Positions 2,745 through 64,000 of a DNA stretch of 64,000 bases are shown one piece after another. The translations under genes were made by a program, and so were the position numbers. Source of the stretch: Ostrinia nubilalis (taxonomy: Eukaryota > Arthropoda > Insecta > Lepidoptera > Crambidae); contig NC_087114.1 in assembly GCF_963855985.1 (NCBI RefSeq), positions 2,753,001-2,817,000 on the forward strand, given 5' to 3'. How positions within the stretch are numbered: position 1 is the stretch's first letter; each line of letters starts with the position of its first letter. The notes below the pieces were generated by a model. It was given only the letters and a program-made list of their open reading frames with translations, did not search any database and was not told where the DNA came from.

Positions 2745-4793
2745 TATTGCTTACAAAATTTATTACATACAAAAGGCACTTTAACATCGGTCTTATAATA
2801 CTGTTCTCTTGCGTGACAATCATTGTGATGATATAGACAAAATCAATTGGTACATACTGTACAGTTATAGACCGAAACGAAATATTTTATAAGAAAGAAG
2901 CCGTGGCGAAGCATATTTTATTTTCTTCATAAATAGAGAGAATAGTGATGGAGAGAAACAGCGTTGTTATCTAGTAAAAGATATGACATCATTATTTGAA
3001 TCTGAGAATCAAAAAATCTTTATGTAGGTAGTGGCAGGTCAACCTAACACTTGCCATTCGATTTTAAACTTTACAATTAGGTGTTTAAAGTTCAAAATCA
3101 ATTGACAAAACTAGCAGAATCAACCCTAAAATAAAGGTTTATTTAACAAAGTAACTATAAAAACAAATACGTTCGTTCCAGTCTGGCGTAGCACGCATTA
3201 ATGACAATAAATAAATTTGCCTAGCCTAAGTGTGCACTAAATATTTATTATCTTCATTAAAAAGCAAAATGTTCGTGCTGACAACGAAAAATGGGCTAAA
3301 ATGGCGCGTGTATTTTATTTAAGGTTAAAAATCTCGGAATGTTTCGTAAAAACAATATTTACTTGCATTAGTTTAGTGCCTAATTTTATTATGCGAAAAA
3401 GCATTTTATAAAAATATAGTCTTAAATTACAACGAACGGGTATAAGGCTAAAATATATAAATATGTACAAGGAATTGACATCTTGCTACACCTCACATAC
3501 GTGCAGGTACTTAAAATAATAAATAAGTTTTATATTGAGTTTGTATAAAAATCTCTACTTAAAATCCGCAAAGATTTTTTAAATAAGTAAAAAAACATAA
3601 GGAATATTTAAAACTGCAATGTTTTCATAAAAAAAATCTTTTGCCAAAAGATATTTAAAAATCTACATCTAATAAAACGGAATGAATGTTGAATTTCTGA
3701 GATACAGTTTGGTCCGCTTATTTAAAACTTTTTAATGTAAATAGGTACAGAAAATAGTTATTGCAGTTCTCAACGTTATAGAGTATGCATTTGTAACAAA
3801 GTTGACAAGTTCAACACGTTGAAAATCGTCTTTATACTATGTTTAAATAACAATAGTACTTAAAAATACATATTTAACTATGTATGTATAAATATAAATA
3901 TTTTATAAAATATCTGTCCAGCTTTCTATTATTTTAATATTTATACACTTTAATCAAGGCAAAATATGGACTGAATTTATTATTAGTTACTTTGTTACAC
4001 ATTTTTGTAGTCATACAAAATACACAAGTCTGTACGAGAAAATTTGGAAGTCCTTGAAAGACAATACTAAATGCTGCATGCAACATAATAATGTTTACTT
4101 GCTATATTATGTAGAGATGATGAAAAAGCTACCAAAGCTATTGGCGGCATAAAAATGAGTATTTTTAATAGTGACTGAGTTTCAGCACTGGCCCATTTAT
4201 TGTCCCGAAGCAGTGGTAGGGTTAATATTGGGACGTGTAAAAGTGCTTTTGAAAAGCCAACTTGCATAAAAAATAGTTTTATGAGTTTTTTATTACGTTT
4301 TGTCGGTTTGTTAAAGTTTTTAATATGACTTTTTCAAGGACTAACATTTCTCATACACCCTGTATATTGTCTTCAAAAAGTGCTGTGACATGCTCATGAT
4401 TAGTAAATAATATAACAATTCTGGCAACAATTACATAATTTATTATAAGTAAGTAGTTCTAATTCGGCGAGCGCTCGCGTTCGATGTAATTTTTGATATT
4501 TATGTAATCAACTTATTTAAATTAATTTTGGATAATTTTTTGCAATACCTAAACACTACCCGACGTACTTTTGAATAATTTCGTCCCAAATTATATGTAT
4601 TTTGTGACTATAAAAATATGATTATAATGTTTCTTTTTAATAAAGTCAATAATTTTCGGCAACTTCTTACCAAACTTACTTGATTGTGATATTTTTTTTT
4701 TAATTAGTCATGAATGTAGTTGATGCTTCAATCAAGGCAATAATTCTCATCACGAGCGCTCGTGCCTTCGAGCCCTCTCTTCTCCAGGTGTCT
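2745..4793 (-). other. Probable Lasp 3' UTR and flank
   Basis: AT-rich and low in recognisable transposons apart from one interspersed-repeat fragment at about 4177-4290. Several minus-strand AATAAA signals occur, for example around 2759-2764 and 4439-4444. The poly(A) site cannot be fixed from sequence alone. Confidence 0.4.
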
Positions 4794-58100: not shown

Positions 58101-61100
58101 GGTATCCGGCCGGATAGTGAGTTACTATCCGGTATCCGGCAGGATAGTAATTTTAGGCCGGATATCCGGCCTACCGGATAGTTACCGGATATCCGTTTCA
58201 TCTCTACTCGCAACTCAGTTGTTCTACGGTAAAAAGTTGTGAGATCCATGTAATACCAAGTCCAGGCCAGGAAATCTTTAACGTTTTACATAAATATATT
58301 GACTTGGCCATCGCACTAAATAATTTAATTTACACGTGTTTTCATGGTCATGGACTTGGTTTTTTTGACAAGTATTGTTTTTGATGGGTTCAACTTTCTG
58401 TAACTCCTGTGTAGCCAAGATCTACTGTTATGTATGTTACAGTAAAAACTCATAATCAGTCCAAACCCTTTTAACTGCAAAAATCTGACAAAAGTGGTAA
58501 CTAATGCCCCTGATTATTATCACTTTTAACTGATTTTTCCAGTCAAAAGTGGTCCGTGGCGTTAGTCAAAAAATTATAATAAAAATAAACTTTTTTAAAA
58601 ACAAGCTTTTATTCTGAATTTCGAAAGTTTGTATCGCGCATGGAATTTATTCCTCTTTTTCTCTGTTTGCGCTACAAGCTTTCGAAATTCAGAATAAAAG
58701 CTTGTTTTTAAAAAAGTTTATTTTTATTATAATTTTATTTTACACTTTTTAGTTATATCTTAATCTCAGGACCCTGGACATTATCTAATACTAAAGTGCT
58801 CGAAAAGACAAATCCAACGAACCCAAACTCGATGAGTTTCCGCCGTTTTGTTTAGGAGTTCCTATGGCCACCTCCCGACTCCATCATCAGACCAGCTCAA
58901 TGGTACCATAATATTGCATTGTCATCGTACTTACATAAGTATACCAAATTTCAGCTCAATCGGTTGAGGAGAACTGGTCTTAAATTCAGTTGCAAGATTT
59001 GTCCCACACATACTAACAAGTGAAGTCAATATAAAGCTTGTAAAAAGCTTGTAAAAATCAAAATCACTTTTGACCGCACAAAATCGTGGTAGGGTTAATA
59101 CTGGGACGTGTAAAAGTGCTTTTTAAAAGCCTACTTGCAAAATAAAATGAGTTTATGACCCTCTCAATTTGATCTGTATTCTTGATCTATGTTTTTCATT
59201 TCAGGTTTTACGCCCATCATCTCGTAAAGACGACGTCGTTCTCGCTATATCCATTACTGGGACTGTTAAGGTATGCCCTTTTAATGTTTCTACACTCGAC
59301 ATCAAATAAATTGCACCACCCGCGACAAGCATTTTCAAACGTATGCATCCCTACTTCCCACCAATATTGGCACCATTTAAAAGCCTAGTTCTAAACTTCA
59401 TTTTATTAAAGGAAAGGTTTTTACCCCAAAAATGTGTCTTTACAAGGATCCAGAGTCACTTCTTCAAAAAATAGCCATTTTTTATGACTATAAAACTGTT
59501 AAGTTGGGATTAATCGCTATCCATCTGTTAAAGAGGACACGTGTGATCATTATTTGGTTTTATAACCATAAAATTTGGTCTAATTGATCCCAGATGTGAG
59601 CCCAAAGTGAGGTCTTTTTTCAAGTCACATTTATGGTATATGTTAATCATTTATGAAGAAATTAAATGTGTTTTTCTTTAAGGATATTTATTGGGCTTTC
59701 AAATAACACCAATATTGTTGGGGCACCATGATTGTGTCAGAAGAAAATCTTTAAAGTTCGCGTCGAGGGTGGTGCGGTTTATTTGCTGTCGAGTCTATTT
59801 TATGTGTTGTCACTCACAATGTGTATGAATTTTTAATACCTAATACTCTACCAATTTTCAAACTCAGCGGCAAAATAGTCGCCCGGCAAGCAATAGGCTT
59901 TTGGTTCTACTATTATTACATAAACTAATTGATAATTTCAGGTAAAAAAAAGCAACAGTCACTGTTATTATTACCGTTGTTTTTTCAACATTCTTCTTCT
60001 CAATTCTATCCACCCGTTTCTTTTTTTCAAAATGTACTGTTCACTGTATACGGTGGACAATATTTACGATACGGAACTCAAGTCGGTCTTTTCAACATCT
60101 TTTAATTCCAAAACGGGGTCTCAACGAGTTTTCTCTTTAATTGTAATAGAACGCGTATCTTCACCTTAAAGGCCGGCAACGCACCTGTAACGCCCCTGGG
60201 TGTCTATGGGCGACGGTAATCACTTACCATCAGGTGATCCGTCTGCTCGTTTGCCTCCTGAAAAAAACGCAAAATTTTATAGGTTAAACGCTATTATCTG
60301 TGTCAGTGCACGAGGTATGAGAGCGGATGATGTATTTTTAAGACTTTAAGAGTAGGCGCACACCGTTGATTTTTCGGCGGCCGATAGTTTAGTCGGGCAG
60401 TTGATCAGTATGGGCATGTATGGGAGTGCGCACACTACGCCGATTCGATTTGGCCGATTCTTCATACAATTTAAAATCGGGCACAACTATCGGCCAACTA
60501 AAAATCAACGGTGTGCGCCTACTCTAAATGTCTGCTAGATTTTAGATTTGTATGCTCTCTTATGTTATAACATTGTCAATGTCACCCCTCCCGTGCCGCT
60601 CCTATACCTCAGGCACTACTGAGTTATGCGTTAGACCTTACGTTATAATACCTTATTATATCTCTCCAGGTCTGGTCACTCCTAGGCCACGAGAACAAGC
60701 AGTCGGAGCCGATATACGAGAACGAGTCGAAGCAGATCCGTTGCCTCAACGCTTTGTCTCTTAACTGCTGCGCATACAACCAAAGGACCGTGCTAATCGT
60801 GTGCGCCAAGTATTGTCAGATATACGACGCAGGTTAGTAACTTTTCATCCATCCCTTTTTTTCCCTTTTCCCTTTTCTCCTTTTCCCCCTTTTTCTCCTT
60901 CCCCTTTTCCCCTTTCTCCCCTTTTCCCCTTTCCCCTTTCCCTTTTCTCCCCTTTTTCTCCTTCCCCTTTTCCCCTTTCTCCCCTACCCCCTTTTCCCCT
61001 TTCTCCCCTTTCCCCTTCCCCTTTTCTCCCCTTCCCACCCTCCGTATACGAGAACGAGTCGAAGCAGATACGCTGCCTCAACGCTTTGTCTCTTAACTGC

Positions 61101-62879
61101 TGCGCGTACAACCAAAGAACTGTGCTAATCGTGTGCGCCAAGTATTGTCAGATATACGACGCAGGTTAGTGTTTCTACCTCTTACCTTTCCGGTTTTTTC
61201 CTTTTCCCTTTCCTCCCCTTTCCCCTTTCTCCCCTTCCCCTTTTTCCCTTTCTCCCCTTCCCCTTTTCCCCTTTCTCCCCTTTCCTCTTATCCCCTGTCT
61301 CCCCTTTCCCCTTTTCCTTCCATTTAATCTTTATCCCCTTCCCCTGTTCCCCATCCCTTTTCTCCCCTTCCCCCTTTCACCGCTTCCCCTTGCCAATCCC
61401 CGCCTTTCTCCCCTTCCCCTTTTTCCCTTTCTCCCCTACCCCTTTTCCCCTTTCTCCCCTTTTCCCCTTTCTCCCCTTTCCCCTTCCCCTTTTCCCTTTT
61501 CTCCCCTTCCCCCTTTTCCCCTTTCTGCCCTACCCCCTTTTCCCCTTTCTCCCCTTTTCCCCTTTTATCCCCTTCCCCTTTTTCCTCTATTTCATCTTTC
61601 TCCCCTTCAATATTTCTCCCCTTCCCACCCTCCACATACGAGAACGAGTCGAAGCAGATCCGCTGCCTCAACGCTTTGTCTCTTAACTGCTGCGCGTACA
61701 ACCAAAGAACTGTGCTAATCGTGTGCGCCAAGTATTGTCAGATATACGACGCAGGTTAGTAACTTTTCATCCATCCCTTTTTCTCCCCTTCCCCTTTTCT
61801 CCCCTTCCCCCTTTTCCCCCTTCCCCCTTTCCCCTTTCTCCCCTACCCCCTTTTCCCCTTTTATCCCCTTCCCCTTTTTCTTCCATTTCATCTTTCTCCC
61901 CTTCCCTTTTCTCCCCTTCCCACCCTCCATATACGAGAACGAGTCGAAGCAGATCCGCTGCCTCAACGCTCTGTCGCTGAACTGCTGCGCGTACAACCAA
62001 AGGACCGTGCTGATCGTGTGCGCCAAGTATTGTCAGATATACGACGCAGGTTAGTAAAAATACTTCCCCTTACCTTTTCTTTCTTTGCCGTTTCTTCCCC
62101 TTCCCCTTTTTCCCTTTCTCCCCTTCCGCCCTTTCCCCTCTCACACCTTCCCCCTTTTCCCCTTTCTCCCCTTCCCCTTTTCCCCTTTCTCCCCGTTCCC
62201 CTTCCCCTTTTTCTTCCATTTCATCTTTCTCCCCTTCCCCCTTTCACCGCTTCCCCTTGCCAATCCGCGTCTTTCTCCCCTTACCCTTTTTTCCTTCCCT
62301 TTTTCTCCCCTTGCCAATCCGCGGCTTTCTCCCCTTCCCTTTTTCTCCCCTTCCCACCCTCCATATACGAGAACGAAGGAGATCCGCTGCCTCAACGCTC
62401 TGTCGTTGAACTGCTGCGCGTACAACCAAAGGACCGTGCTGATCGTGTGCGCCAAGTATTGCCAGATATACGACGCAGGTTAGTGTTTCCCCTTTTCTCC
62501 TTCCCTTTTCTCCTTCCCTTTTCTCCCCTCTTATTGTAACCCGCACATTTACCTCTCTTACTATCGCTCAACTGCCGCGCAATAACTAAATGTAAGTGTT
62601 GCTCGAACTTGCGAGAACCAGTCAAAGCGGATCCGCTGCCTTTTGTTTTTTTTCTTCATTTTTGTGTAGCGGTGAGTCCCCAAAGATGATTATTTATATA
62701 GTATATTTTTTAAGATAACAAATAGACCACCTATTTTTCTTTCCAGGCGATTTCTCAGTCCTCTGCTCGATACAAGCGCCCCAAGGCGAGCGTTGGATGT
62801 CAGGGGACTTCCTAGCACCGGACCGGATCCTCGTATGGTCCACAGAAGGCAAGGGATATTTGTACAAACTGCCCGCCAA
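54935..62879 (+). CDS. Rbcn-3B: WDR7 / Rabconnectin-3 beta, 5' part (six coding exons, continues off the window)
   Basis: WD-repeat partner of DMXL (Rabconnectin-3 alpha), which promotes V-ATPase assembly and vesicle acidification. Coding exons 54935-55168, 55777-55890, 56676-56819, 59205-59270, 60670-60832 and 62747-62879 join in frame to about 284 residues. The start reads MPGTNLIVPVVLWGKHAPTH, and diagnostic stretches include TGCYDGQICIWQ, SSEAGEMCTWDLVDGKC, NPDWISALHV and YCQIYDAGDFSVLC, which match the start of WDR7 proteins. The WD-type GH...IW/TW patterns give the first blades of the N-terminal propeller. The ATG lies 5 nt into the second exon and a non-coding exon precedes it. The last exon in view ends with a GTAAGT donor, so most of the gene lies to the right. 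Intron 6 carries repeated copies of the end of the preceding exon. Confidence 0.94.
55264..55499. mobile_element. hAT MITE with 8-bp target duplication
   Basis: CAGTGGTTCTTAACC and GGTTAAGAACCACTG exact inverted ends. GTATACAG at 55256-55263 and 55500-55507. In WDR7 intron 2 (between coding exons 1 and 2). Confidence 0.9.
55777..55890 (+). CDS. Rbcn-3B: WDR7 coding exon 2
   Basis: 38 codons, DNNFIVSSSEAGEMCTWDLV to HTNIQ, a WD blade ending in TWDL. Acceptor TTTTCCAG, donor GTAAGG. Confidence 0.95.
56676..56819 (+). CDS. Rbcn-3B: WDR7 coding exon 3
   Basis: 48 codons, AYHMCNSDDLRLFCNGYYAE to NPDWISALH, followed by GTAAGT. A Helitron begins about 20 bp past the donor. Confidence 0.95.
56840..57037 (+). 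mobile_element. Non-autonomous Helitron next to WDR7 exon donor
   Basis: TCCTACTAATATTATAAATG to GCGGGTGAAGCCGCGGGC and CTAG. Starts 20 bp after the exon-3 end. Confidence 0.8.
57565..58387. mobile_element. Palindromic element interrupted by a hAT MITE
   Basis: CATCAAAAACAATACTTGTC and its inverse at 58360-58387 bracket the hAT MITE. The upstream 57040-57560 is another interspersed repeat with GGCACGGCAGTGCCCCCACC. Confidence 0.65.
57611..58206. mobile_element. hAT MITE with 8-bp target duplication (596 bp)
   Basis: TAGAGATGAAACGGATA ends and CCGGATATCCGG-type subterminal repeats. CTCGCAAC duplicated at 57603-57610 and 58207-58214. Inserted inside another palindromic element (57565-58387). 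Confidence 0.85.
58566..58732. repeat. Fold-back repeat
   Basis: AAATTATAATAAAAATAAAC opens and its inverse closes, with AAGCTTTTATTCTGAATTTC in both arms. Arms about 65 bp. Confidence 0.8.
59205..59270 (+). CDS. Rbcn-3B: WDR7 coding exon 4
   Basis: 22 codons, VLRPSSRKDDVVLAISITGT and VK, between TTTCAG and GTATGC. It ends exactly on a codon boundary, so in principle any phase-0 exon could follow. Confidence 0.92.
60349..60526. mobile_element. Fold-back MITE, family 2, copy 3
   Basis: AGAGTAGGCGCACACCG to GTGCGCCTACTCT. In the WDR7 intron 140 bp before the repeated exon. Confidence 0.85.
60670..60832 (+). CDS. Rbcn-3B: WDR7 coding exon 5 (the repeated exon; called exon 6 if the 5' UTR exon is counted)
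   Basis: 163 nt, VWSLLGHENKQSEPIYE then NESKQIRCLNALSLNCCAY and NQRTVLIVCAKYCQIYDAG. Acceptor ATCTCTCCAG, donor GTTAGT. It completes the WD motif begun in the previous exon (TVK-VWSL). The last 112 nt are repeated four times downstream. Confidence 0.95.
61053..61164 (+). repeat. Exon copy B (WDR7 112-nt exon end plus donor)
   Basis: Matches 60721-60832 with five differences (ATC to ATA, CGT to CGC, GCA to GCG, AGG to AGA, ACC to ACT), all silent. The GTTAGT donor is retained. Preceded by more than 200 nt of C/T tract without an AG, so the first AG is the one just before AACGAG. Confidence 0.95.
61643..61754 (+). repeat. Exon copy C (WDR7 112-nt exon end plus donor)
   Basis: Four silent differences from the functional exon (CGC, GCG, AGA, ACT) and no replacement. 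GTTAGT donor retained. The preceding C/T tract is about 470 nt. Confidence 0.95.
61938..62049 (+). repeat. Exon copy D (WDR7 112-nt exon end plus donor)
   Basis: Six codons differ from the functional exon (CGC, CTG, TCG, CTG, GCG, CTG), all silent. GTTAGT donor retained. It shares most changes with copy E. Confidence 0.95.
62372..62478 (+). repeat. Exon copy E (107 nt, frame-shifted)
   Basis: Seven codons differ silently. A 5-nt deletion near its start (after AACGA) breaks the frame. GTTAGT donor retained. Confidence 0.93.
62555..62645 (+). repeat. Decayed remnants of further exon copies
   Basis: TATCGCTCAACTGCCGCGCA near 62563 resembles the middle of the exon copy, and GAGAACCAGTCAAAGCGGAT near 62610 resembles its start. 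Both carry replacement changes and lack the donor. Confidence 0.7.
62747..62879 (+). CDS. Rbcn-3B: WDR7 coding exon 6
   Basis: 133 nt, (G)DFSVLCSIQAPQGERWMSGD to YLYKLPA, between TTTCTTTCCAG and GTAAGT. It takes up the one base left by the repeated exon to give DAGDFS. Last exon visible. Confidence 0.94.
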
Positions 62880-62918
62880 GTAAGTGAAATGTATTCTTGT
62901 CACTATTTAGAATACGTA

Positions 62919-63252
62919 TAGATGACCCACGCTGAACTGTCCCACCAAACTCAATGACAGGGGGGCGCCACTATAGTTCAACTATGTGGTTTCCAACATG
63001 GCAAAAATTGGAACCAGCGATCCGGTATTGACGGTGGCGCCCCGCTGTCAATGTCATGGCTAAGACAGTTCAGTTTAATGGAACTATAGATGACCCACGC
63101 TGAACTGTCCCACCAAACTCAATGACAGGGGGGCGCTACCATCGTTCAACTTTATGGTTTCCAACATGGCAAAAATCGGAACCAGCGATTCGGTATTGAC
63201 GGTGGCGCCCCAGTGTCAATGTCATGGATAGGACAGTTCAGTATTTTGGAAC
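62919..63252 (+). repeat. Two tandem copies of a 167-bp element
   Basis: ATAGATGACCCACGCTGAAC begins each copy. Inside each, GGTGGCGCCCC and the GGGGCGCCACTA-type start form an inverted pair, so the unit is itself MITE-like. Confidence 0.85.
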
Positions 63253-63259
63253 TATATAT

Positions 63260-64000
63260 GAATTAATTGAGATGTATTTTTGGGCATTCCATTGTGTCAA
63301 GTCAAAGTGTTCACCACTGATCGGATTTTGAATAATCTAAAAGTTATTACGTCATATTTATGAATAAAATAAAATATTTTGCACTACCCTGTGTCAAAAA
63401 TACTTTGTGATAGTAGAAAATCACAAATAAAATCATCATTAGAACTTCATCGGAGCACAATCGCCTAAGTTTTGAACACATATTTCAATTATACTTTACT
63501 TATCGCTCGATATAAATATTTTTGTTTGCGAAAAAAGACTGAGAAGTAAGGTATGATCGAAATGAAAATACAATACAATGTCATTAAAGAAAAATGACTG
63601 GAGACTTGTTACAAAATAAAATTATGACATGACGAATCCAAAATACAGTGTTTTTACTGTATCGTATAATTATATTTTATGTATAATTTAAATGTATTCT
63701 TACTAAGTGAGGTGTATTCTTCATTCATTGGCGTATGCTACATAACTGCCGATATAAATATTATGTATTCTAACTCCTGTAGTTACGAAAAAGCCTCCTG
63801 CCATTTCTTGAGCTAAACAAAACATTTCTGTTATAGCAAACTGCGTGGACGGGCTATAAGTAGGTCAGCACCACTTTGTTTGTCTGTAAATTGAACCCTT
63901 GTATTTATAGAATAGACCCCGTATTTATTATTTGCTTTGCACATTTTAGAACGCTTCGTATTTTGAATTTGAGTGCGTTTACTTTTGATTATGAATATTT
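63260..64000 (+). other. WDR7 intron, no further feature seen
   Basis: AT-rich sequence after the last visible exon and the 167-bp tandem repeats. No exon with good splice sites was found before the edge. Confidence 0.6.

What the first reader, a model, noticed from the sequence alone, without database searches (positions are those of the whole stretch)
60721..62478. Exon-end copies in WDR7 intron differ only at silent positions
The last 112 nt of the coding exon ending at 60832, with its GTTAGT donor, recur at 61053-61164, 61643-61754, 61938-62049 and 62372-62478. Read in the WDR7 frame, copies B to E differ from the functional exon at 5, 4, 6 and 7 codons, and every one is synonymous (for example ATC/ATA, CGT/CGC, TTG/CTG, TCT/TCG, CTA/CTG, TGT/TGC). 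Dead intronic copies should collect mostly replacement changes. So either the copies are translated in some transcripts, or they are repeatedly converted from the functional exon, or they are alleles of the one functional exon joined by the assembler. Each is informative.
Basis: seen in the sequence. Interest (0 to 1): 0.88.

Follow-up and report, generated by a model that had tools for sequence, protein, structure and literature searches.

The report
Silent-only exon-end copies in introns
Inside one intron of an insect WDR7 gene lie four copies of the end of the preceding exon that differ from it almost only at silent positions, and the same pattern recurs at five other exons nearby; the copies are likely kept protein-like by repeated exchange with the working exon rather than by being translated, but this is not proven.

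Summary
Two relics (62561-62580, 62612-62641) have decayed. Eleven of 12 variable sites in the 112-nt block are silent (chance below 1e-4), so plain dead copies are rejected. It is not unique: in 314 kb around the window I found eight exons, five of them in WDR7, whose 3' end plus donor is repeated downstream. In six, 17 near-full copies carry 90 silent and 5 replacement differences (KS 0.18, KR 0.004; adjacent intron 0.16); one family is nearly identical, one is decaying (34 silent, 22 replacement codons). None of the 17 has a usable acceptor by a crude score, so translation is poorly supported. Exchange with the working exon, which filters replacement changes, gives the right kind of pattern in simulation, but too little silent divergence, most of all for two-copy families. 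I commit to exchange at 0.4, translation being the main rival. Transcripts, population data or a sister species would decide.

The parts
59205..59270 (+). WDR7 upstream exon (inferred), ends ...ISITGTVK in phase 0
   Evidence: translation motif and donor GTATGC; ends inferred
60670..60832 (+). Functional WDR7 exon (copy A), phase 0 in, phase 1 out, acceptor ctctccag, donor GTTAGT
   Evidence: acceptor score 6.1; homologues incl. a protein named WDR7 in Apis cerana and a 97% match in Spodoptera littoralis
60712..60832 (+). Part of the exon that recurs downstream
60839..61043 (+). Pyrimidine tract between A and B
   Evidence: TRF arrays; no AG before 61051
61044..61164 (+). Copy B: 5 silent, plus ATA>GTA at its first codon
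61171..61633 (+). Pyrimidine tract between B and C
61634..61754 (+). Copy C: 4 silent, plus ATA>ACA at its first codon; right flank shared with A
61761..61928 (+). Pyrimidine tract between C and D
61929..62049 (+). Copy D: 6 silent, no replacement
62056..62362 (+). Pyrimidine tract between D and E
62363..62478 (+). Copy E: 7 silent codons, CAG>GAG, 5-nt deletion
62561..62580 (+). Decayed relic F of the exon middle (Cys>Arg)
   Evidence: shuffle p 0.002 against D, 0.01 against A
62612..62641 (+). Decayed relic G of the block start (Glu>Gln, Gln>Arg)
62747..62879 (+). Next WDR7 exon (GDFSVLCS...)
   Evidence: ends inferred

Best explanation
An intron of WDR7 holds four downstream copies of the last 121 bases (116 in one) of the preceding exon with its splice donor, and these copies likely stay protein-like because they are repeatedly exchanged with the working exon, which selection keeps free of replacement changes, rather than because they are themselves translated. 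Step 1 (copies and junction shown, history inferred): a segment running from codon 60712 across the donor into a pyrimidine-rich tract was duplicated in tandem; all four copies have the same 20 bases (TTCTCCCCTTCCCACCCTCC) just left of the block, so they probably descend from one founding duplication that was amplified later. Step 2 (inferred): unequal exchange or gene conversion in the 120-bp block moves sequence between exon A and the copies; replacement changes die whenever they sit in A, silent ones pass. Step 3 (decay shown, cause inferred): pieces that lost length or homology leave the exchange and decay, such as relics F and G, the deletion in E and the decaying copies at other WDR7 exons. 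The same process would act at the other exon-end arrays nearby.
For: Silent-only divergence of the five copies and of 17 copies in six families, 90 silent to 5 replacement. Dead-from-birth model rejected. Copies lack usable acceptors: 0 of 17 reach the lowest functional score of 2.0 in phase and open, 6 of 6 functional exons do. Relics and most of the short or rearranged copies carry replacement changes or stops. Replacements gather at the left edge of a block, where homology with the exon ends: in WDR7 B, C and E, and in family 8, where 15 of 22 replacement codons lie in the first 33 of about 91 bases (counted by hand; copies are not independent). Exon tree and flank disagree: C is 1 difference from B but shares its right flank with A. 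In family 7 the exon block of one copy differs at 2 of 122 sites while the adjoining intron differs at 10 of 56. Simulated exchange with a filter gives silent:replacement 1283:37 among diverged copies for five copies at diversity 0.043 and 2Nc 30.
Against: In that simulation the mean KS is only 0.08 (five copies; 0.02 if the working exon is the only donor) and 0.01 (two copies), against 0.18 observed; with KS near 0.17 for two copies there are about 6.6 replacements per copy. Two-copy families (WDR7 second exon, 7 silent and 0 replacement; myosin V, 5 and 1) fit worst. Diversity 0.043 is the highest of 38 butterflies (PMC6672018, passages). Mosaicism is weak evidence: no incompatible sites in the WDR7 block; five incompatible pairs in family 3, four of them involving one site, so one or two recurrent changes could explain them. 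KS about equals intron divergence, which direct constraint on the copies explains more simply.
Confidence: 0.4

Rival explanations
1. The copies are translated: some transcripts skip exon A and splice to a copy, or reach it by a route not recognised here, so each copy is under ordinary coding selection.
For: KS 0.179, intron 0.163, KR 0.004 is the classic signature of coding constraint on both sides. In WDR7 each copy follows a long pyrimidine tract with no AG until the GAG at its start, and that AG is in phase with exon A's acceptor in B, C and D, so skipping A would give an in-frame protein 17 residues shorter. Family 3 copies c1-c3 also have an in-phase open AG, scored 0.3-0.4.
Against: 0 of 17 copies have an in-phase open acceptor as good as the weakest working one; family 6 copies c1-c4 have stops before the block for each of the four best acceptors listed; GAG is a poor acceptor (recalled). 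E would be frameshifted from its first AG. Several redundant copies of the same peptide would each have to matter. Adding a copy to A instead of replacing it shifts the frame.
Confidence: 0.27
2. Recent capture: the copies come from diverged functional haplotypes (old alleles or hybridising lineages) joined by unequal crossing-over and have hardly had time to decay.
For: In WDR7 all 8 deep changes are silent while private ones are mixed (3 silent to 1 replacement, or 3 to 3 with the left edge; Fisher p 0.33 and 0.055, tree by hand). A model with stems functional and tips dead fits nearly as well as full constraint (-12.9 against -11.5). KS is in the same range in most families.
Against: Needs pairwise silent divergence of at least 0.08 among functional haplotypes, about twice the top butterfly value of 0.043. 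Copy-private changes are almost all silent in families 3 and 4 too.
Confidence: 0.17
3. Independent dead intronic copies; the silent-only pattern is chance plus selective reading.
For: Some replacement changes and a frameshifting deletion are present. The first survey favoured silent-rich pairs. Family 8 and the short copies do decay.
Against: Likelihood -20.6 against -11.5; pooled 90 to 5; a second scan by donor, not by silence, found the same families, and among 21 WDR7 exon pieces picked by homology or position the copies of four of the five copied exons are mainly silent.
Confidence: 0.04
4. Assembly artefact: alleles of one exon joined in tandem.
For: Alleles would differ silently.
Against: No N in 314 kb, 495 Mb in 52 contigs, copies embedded in different flanks, relics present, same anatomy at eight exons.
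Confidence: 0.05

Closest known systems
Tandem duplicated, mutually exclusive exons (Dscam and others; PMC9013439 and PMC3236188, start of abstracts in search listings only)
   Same: Tandem copies of exon sequence in one gene, in the same orientation, with donor and reading frame kept.
   Different: Here only the exon's 3' part is copied, no good acceptor precedes the copies, and the encoded peptide is the same in nearly all.
[quoted passage not shown]
   Same: Partial exon duplication that includes a splice site; that paper cites tandem duplications of a few hundred bases as frequent in natural Drosophila populations.
   Different: No new intron is made; the copies lie inside an existing intron and are repeated many times.
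Concerted evolution by gene conversion in small tandem families (recalled)
   Same: Copies stay alike in the coding block and may exchange.
   Different: Silent divergence is higher than the simulated exchange reaches.

Membership tests
Mutually exclusive tandem exons | Each copy has its own acceptor and donor | tested here: not met
   Donor present in the five WDR7 copies; acceptor of functional quality in 0 of 17 copies of six families (crude score from a recalled consensus)
Mutually exclusive tandem exons | Exactly one copy appears in each mRNA | not testable with these tools
   no transcript data
Gene family under concerted evolution | Exchange between copies leaves mosaics or conflicting trees | tested here: inconclusive
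   flank/exon conflict in WDR7; 0 incompatible pairs in the WDR7 block, 5 in family 3
Neutral intronic pseudo-exons | Replacement changes at the neutral rate | tested here: not met
   KR 0.004 against intron 0.163; replacements are common only in relics, several short or rearranged copies and family 8
Assembly artefact | Copies share flanks or lie at contig joins | tested here: not met
   different intervening tracts, no N; only A and C share a right flank

The most novel reading that the evidence does not exclude
This genome carries a class of intronic exon ends, with the donor in every family seen, that have no recognisable acceptor yet evolve under coding constraint about as strong as real exons (KR/KS 0.02), so they are read at the protein level by a route not yet described, such as splicing to unusual acceptors or replacement of the exon end in body cells.
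Probability: 0.22. Interest if true: 0.88.

Novelty: new variant of a known kind. Interest (0 to 1): 0.6.

Why it matters
If exchange explains it, intronic copies act as a reservoir of silent variants for a working exon, and a single filtered copy can protect its dead neighbours from decay; that can be tested at several exons of one gene. If translation explains it, part of an insect's coding sequence is hidden inside introns. Either way, near-silent divergence is not by itself proof that an extra exon copy is used, which matters for exon annotation.

Tried and rejected
Rejected: plain dead copies, assembly joining, a paralogue as source for WDR7 (none among the five scored matches). Exchange was simulated at the top of butterfly diversity and does not reach the observed KS; I kept it as best explanation because the alternatives fail on anatomy, and gave it only 0.4. 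The B/D flank likeness is not above that of other tract pieces, so I do not use it. A search for pyrimidine-preceded copies in other species: I read all 65 protein hits and saw none, but that is protein data only. PDB and Pfam gave nothing for the exon pair; for a longer piece the PDB search matched 335 sequences, and the 60 shown are WD40-type proteins, not WDR7. Paper searches for intronic exon-end copies and for WDR7 splicing gave no match that I saw in their listings; that is no proof of absence from print. The family 3 exon found no homologue in the protein database and only a GRHL_C hit below Pfam's cut-off; the second WDR7 exon found two unnamed homologues. One search timed out and was rerun; one search ended in a file error after printing the result used. 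In one search the anchor for copy E was one base off; corrected by hand, its best in-phase acceptor is the one scored -4.1. Wrong frames: family 4 (right), families 7 and 8 (right).

Ascertainment: one search listed 236 repeat pairs with at least 4 mismatches and I looked at those at least 60% silent in the best frame; one search then scanned by conserved donor without a mismatch floor, leaving out repeats with more than one distant match. The eight exon families were picked by eye (an open frame and an acceptor, or homology); the remaining rows had no open frame, mostly replacement differences or identical sequence, or were ordinary gene duplicates, and I did not test each. As a less biased check I took 21 WDR7 exon pieces located by homology (20) or by position (family 7): five have downstream copies, and four of these five are mainly silent in their near-full copies. 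The pooled count leaves out families 7 and 8, the short copies and relics, E upstream of its IRC codon (its deletion and CAG>GAG) and the first codon of B and C. Copies of one family are not independent. Intron divergence is from ungapped matches in tracts that slip, and includes family 7, so it is rough.

Full report
What is there. The window is G000:C27:2753001-2817000 of a 495-Mb, 52-contig genome. WDR7 runs on the + strand; its exon pair here finds 65 homologues, the best a 97% match from Spodoptera littoralis and one named WDR7 in Apis cerana, so the host is probably a moth. Exon A is 60670-60832, phase 0 in and phase 1 out. Its last 121 bases and GTTAGT recur at 61044-61164 (B), 61634-61754 (C), 61929-62049 (D) and, 5 bases shorter, at 62363-62478 (E), separated by pyrimidine-rich tracts. 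These five places are the only matches the own-genome search scored.

Check of the claim. Counting codons against A: B 5, C 4, D 6 and E 7 silent. In the 112-nt block there are 12 substituted sites, 11 silent. Under random mutation about a quarter would be silent, so 11 of 11 has a chance of 5e-8 to 6e-7 if all changes fell in dead DNA, or at most about 8e-5 if one partner is the working exon. Two relics downstream have decayed, with replacements, so copies do die.

Where the changes fall. The silent sites give a tree without conflict: 2 changes on A, 2 on the stem of B and C, 4 between D/E and the rest, 1 private to B and 2 to E (tree drawn by hand). The relics share the D/E state at 60754 and 60759 and the copies' state at 60741, which suggests that A changed there. 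So part of the silent changes arose in the working exon. Still, a clock model with one working lineage and copies dead from birth fits far worse (-20.6) than uniformly constrained copies (-11.5 to -12.1 for KR/KS 0.03 to 0.12), while stems functional and tips dead is close (-12.9).

It is not alone. In the 314 kb from C27:2653001 to 2967000 I scanned for near copies within 5-6 kb and found eight exons whose 3' end is repeated downstream together with the donor. Five lie in WDR7, which runs at least from window 54935 to C27:2966222: exon A; 2820969-2821097; about 2828395-2828557 (by position only); 2953912-2954076 (family 6); and 2959040-2959203 (family 8). The other three are a myosin V exon, an exon with a weak grainyhead-like hit and an Ala-rich cuticle-like exon on the other strand within the WDR7 span. 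In six of the eight, 17 near-full copies show 90 silent and 5 replacement differences; KS 0.179, KR 0.004. The intron just past the donor differs at 59 of 362 ungapped sites, 0.163 (counts, family 7 included). Family 7 has two near-full copies with 2 silent, and 1 silent plus 1 replacement, and further pieces with deletions, replacements and a stop. Family 8 is decaying: five copies, 34 silent and 22 replacement codons including two stops, with 15 of the 22 in the left third of the block. I saw no matching family of exon starts with acceptors among the silent-rich pairs.

Are the copies exons? A crude acceptor score, built from a recalled consensus, finds an open in-phase acceptor for 6 of 6 working exons (2.0 to 10.2) and for 0 of 17 copies at that level. 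The WDR7 copies B-D have signals worth noting: a 20-base pyrimidine run identical in all four copies, no AG until the GAG at the copy, and that AG in phase for B, C and D, though its score is only -2.2 to -2.7. Skipping A would then give WDR7 lacking 17 residues. This keeps translation alive as the main rival, but redundancy, the deletion in E and the other families speak against it.

Can exchange do it? In a forward simulation in which replacements are lethal in the working copy and neutral elsewhere, diversity 0.03 gives KS 0.045 with 0.14 replacements per copy (five copies, 2Nc 30), and KS 0.175 only with about 6.6 replacements per copy (two copies, 2Nc 0.3). At 0.043, the top of 38 butterflies (PMC6672018, passages), five copies and 2Nc 30 give KS 0.08, 0.2 replacements per copy, and 1283 silent to 37 replacement among copies with at least four silent differences; but only 22% of copies are that diverged, and 0.5% for two copies; with the working exon as only donor KS is 0.02 and 0.01. 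In the pooled set 15 of 17 copies have at least four (the first survey favoured such copies). So the model makes the right kind of pattern and too little of it. Direct signs of exchange are modest: C is one difference from B but has A's flank; family 3 has five incompatible site pairs, which one or two recurrent changes could also explain; family 7's exon block is far more alike than its intron.

Verdict. Real, not chance, not an artefact as far as the sequence shows, and not confined to one exon. Exchange with a filtered working exon is my best mechanism at 0.4; translation 0.27; recent capture of diverged haplotypes 0.17. Shown: the copies, the silent bias, the recurrence at other exons, the poor acceptors. 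Inferred: exchange, its direction and its rate. Untested: transcription, population state, other species.

Noticed in passing
L006:4002-4105, copy 4398-4501 (C27:2821002-2821501): Second WDR7 exon end with donor GTGAGT copied once downstream: 7 silent, 0 replacement; the worst case for simple exchange.
   Followed up: yes
L020:5509-7204 (C27:2748509-2750204): Exon end RLTVYVCPPGAAVYSALYLHACRAPELMRRLHALLHE (weak grainyhead-like hit) with four longer and two short downstream copies; the longer ones have 6-7 silent and 0-1 replacement differences.
   Followed up: yes
L011:5578-7511 (C27:2658578-2660511, minus strand): Myosin V motor-domain exon end with one intronic copy 1.8 kb downstream: 5 silent, 1 replacement.
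   Followed up: yes
L029:6954 to L030:739 (C27:2953954-2957739): WDR7 exon end MAEPPHTMEIAQ... with five near-full downstream copies, one with donor GC instead of GT; shorter pieces carry mainly replacements.
   Followed up: partly
L009:27-1568 (C27:2847027-2848568, minus strand): Ala-rich cuticle-like exon end in three copies with silent-only differences plus several shorter ones; a distant related match exists, so a paralogue origin is possible.
   Followed up: partly
L007:1395-2435 (C27:2828395-2829435): Exon end with donor GTATGT, probably WDR7 by position: two near-full copies almost identical to it while the introns differ by 12-18%; other pieces have deletions and a stop.
   Followed up: partly
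L030:2040-2858 (C27:2959040-2959858): WDR7 exon end ...LLATSDLPPELLKQEKLTR with five decaying copies; replacements gather at the left, the part next to the donor is best kept.
   Followed up: partly
L006:4904-5080 (C27:2821904-2822080): WDR7-like stretch (GHNGRVNCLLYPHH...) with a stop, shortly after the second copied exon; exon with read-through or a broken piece, not resolved.
   Followed up: no
60341-60533: Inverted repeat with 49-nt arms, 90% complementary, just upstream of exon A; looks like a small transposon.
   Followed up: no
62917-63261: 168-nt unit twice in tandem in the next WDR7 intron, with internal inverted repeats.
   Followed up: no
proteins P0004, P0034, P0039: Read-through fragments from other genomes suggest an extra intron between ESK and QIRC, at the CAG just inside the copied block.
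   Followed up: no
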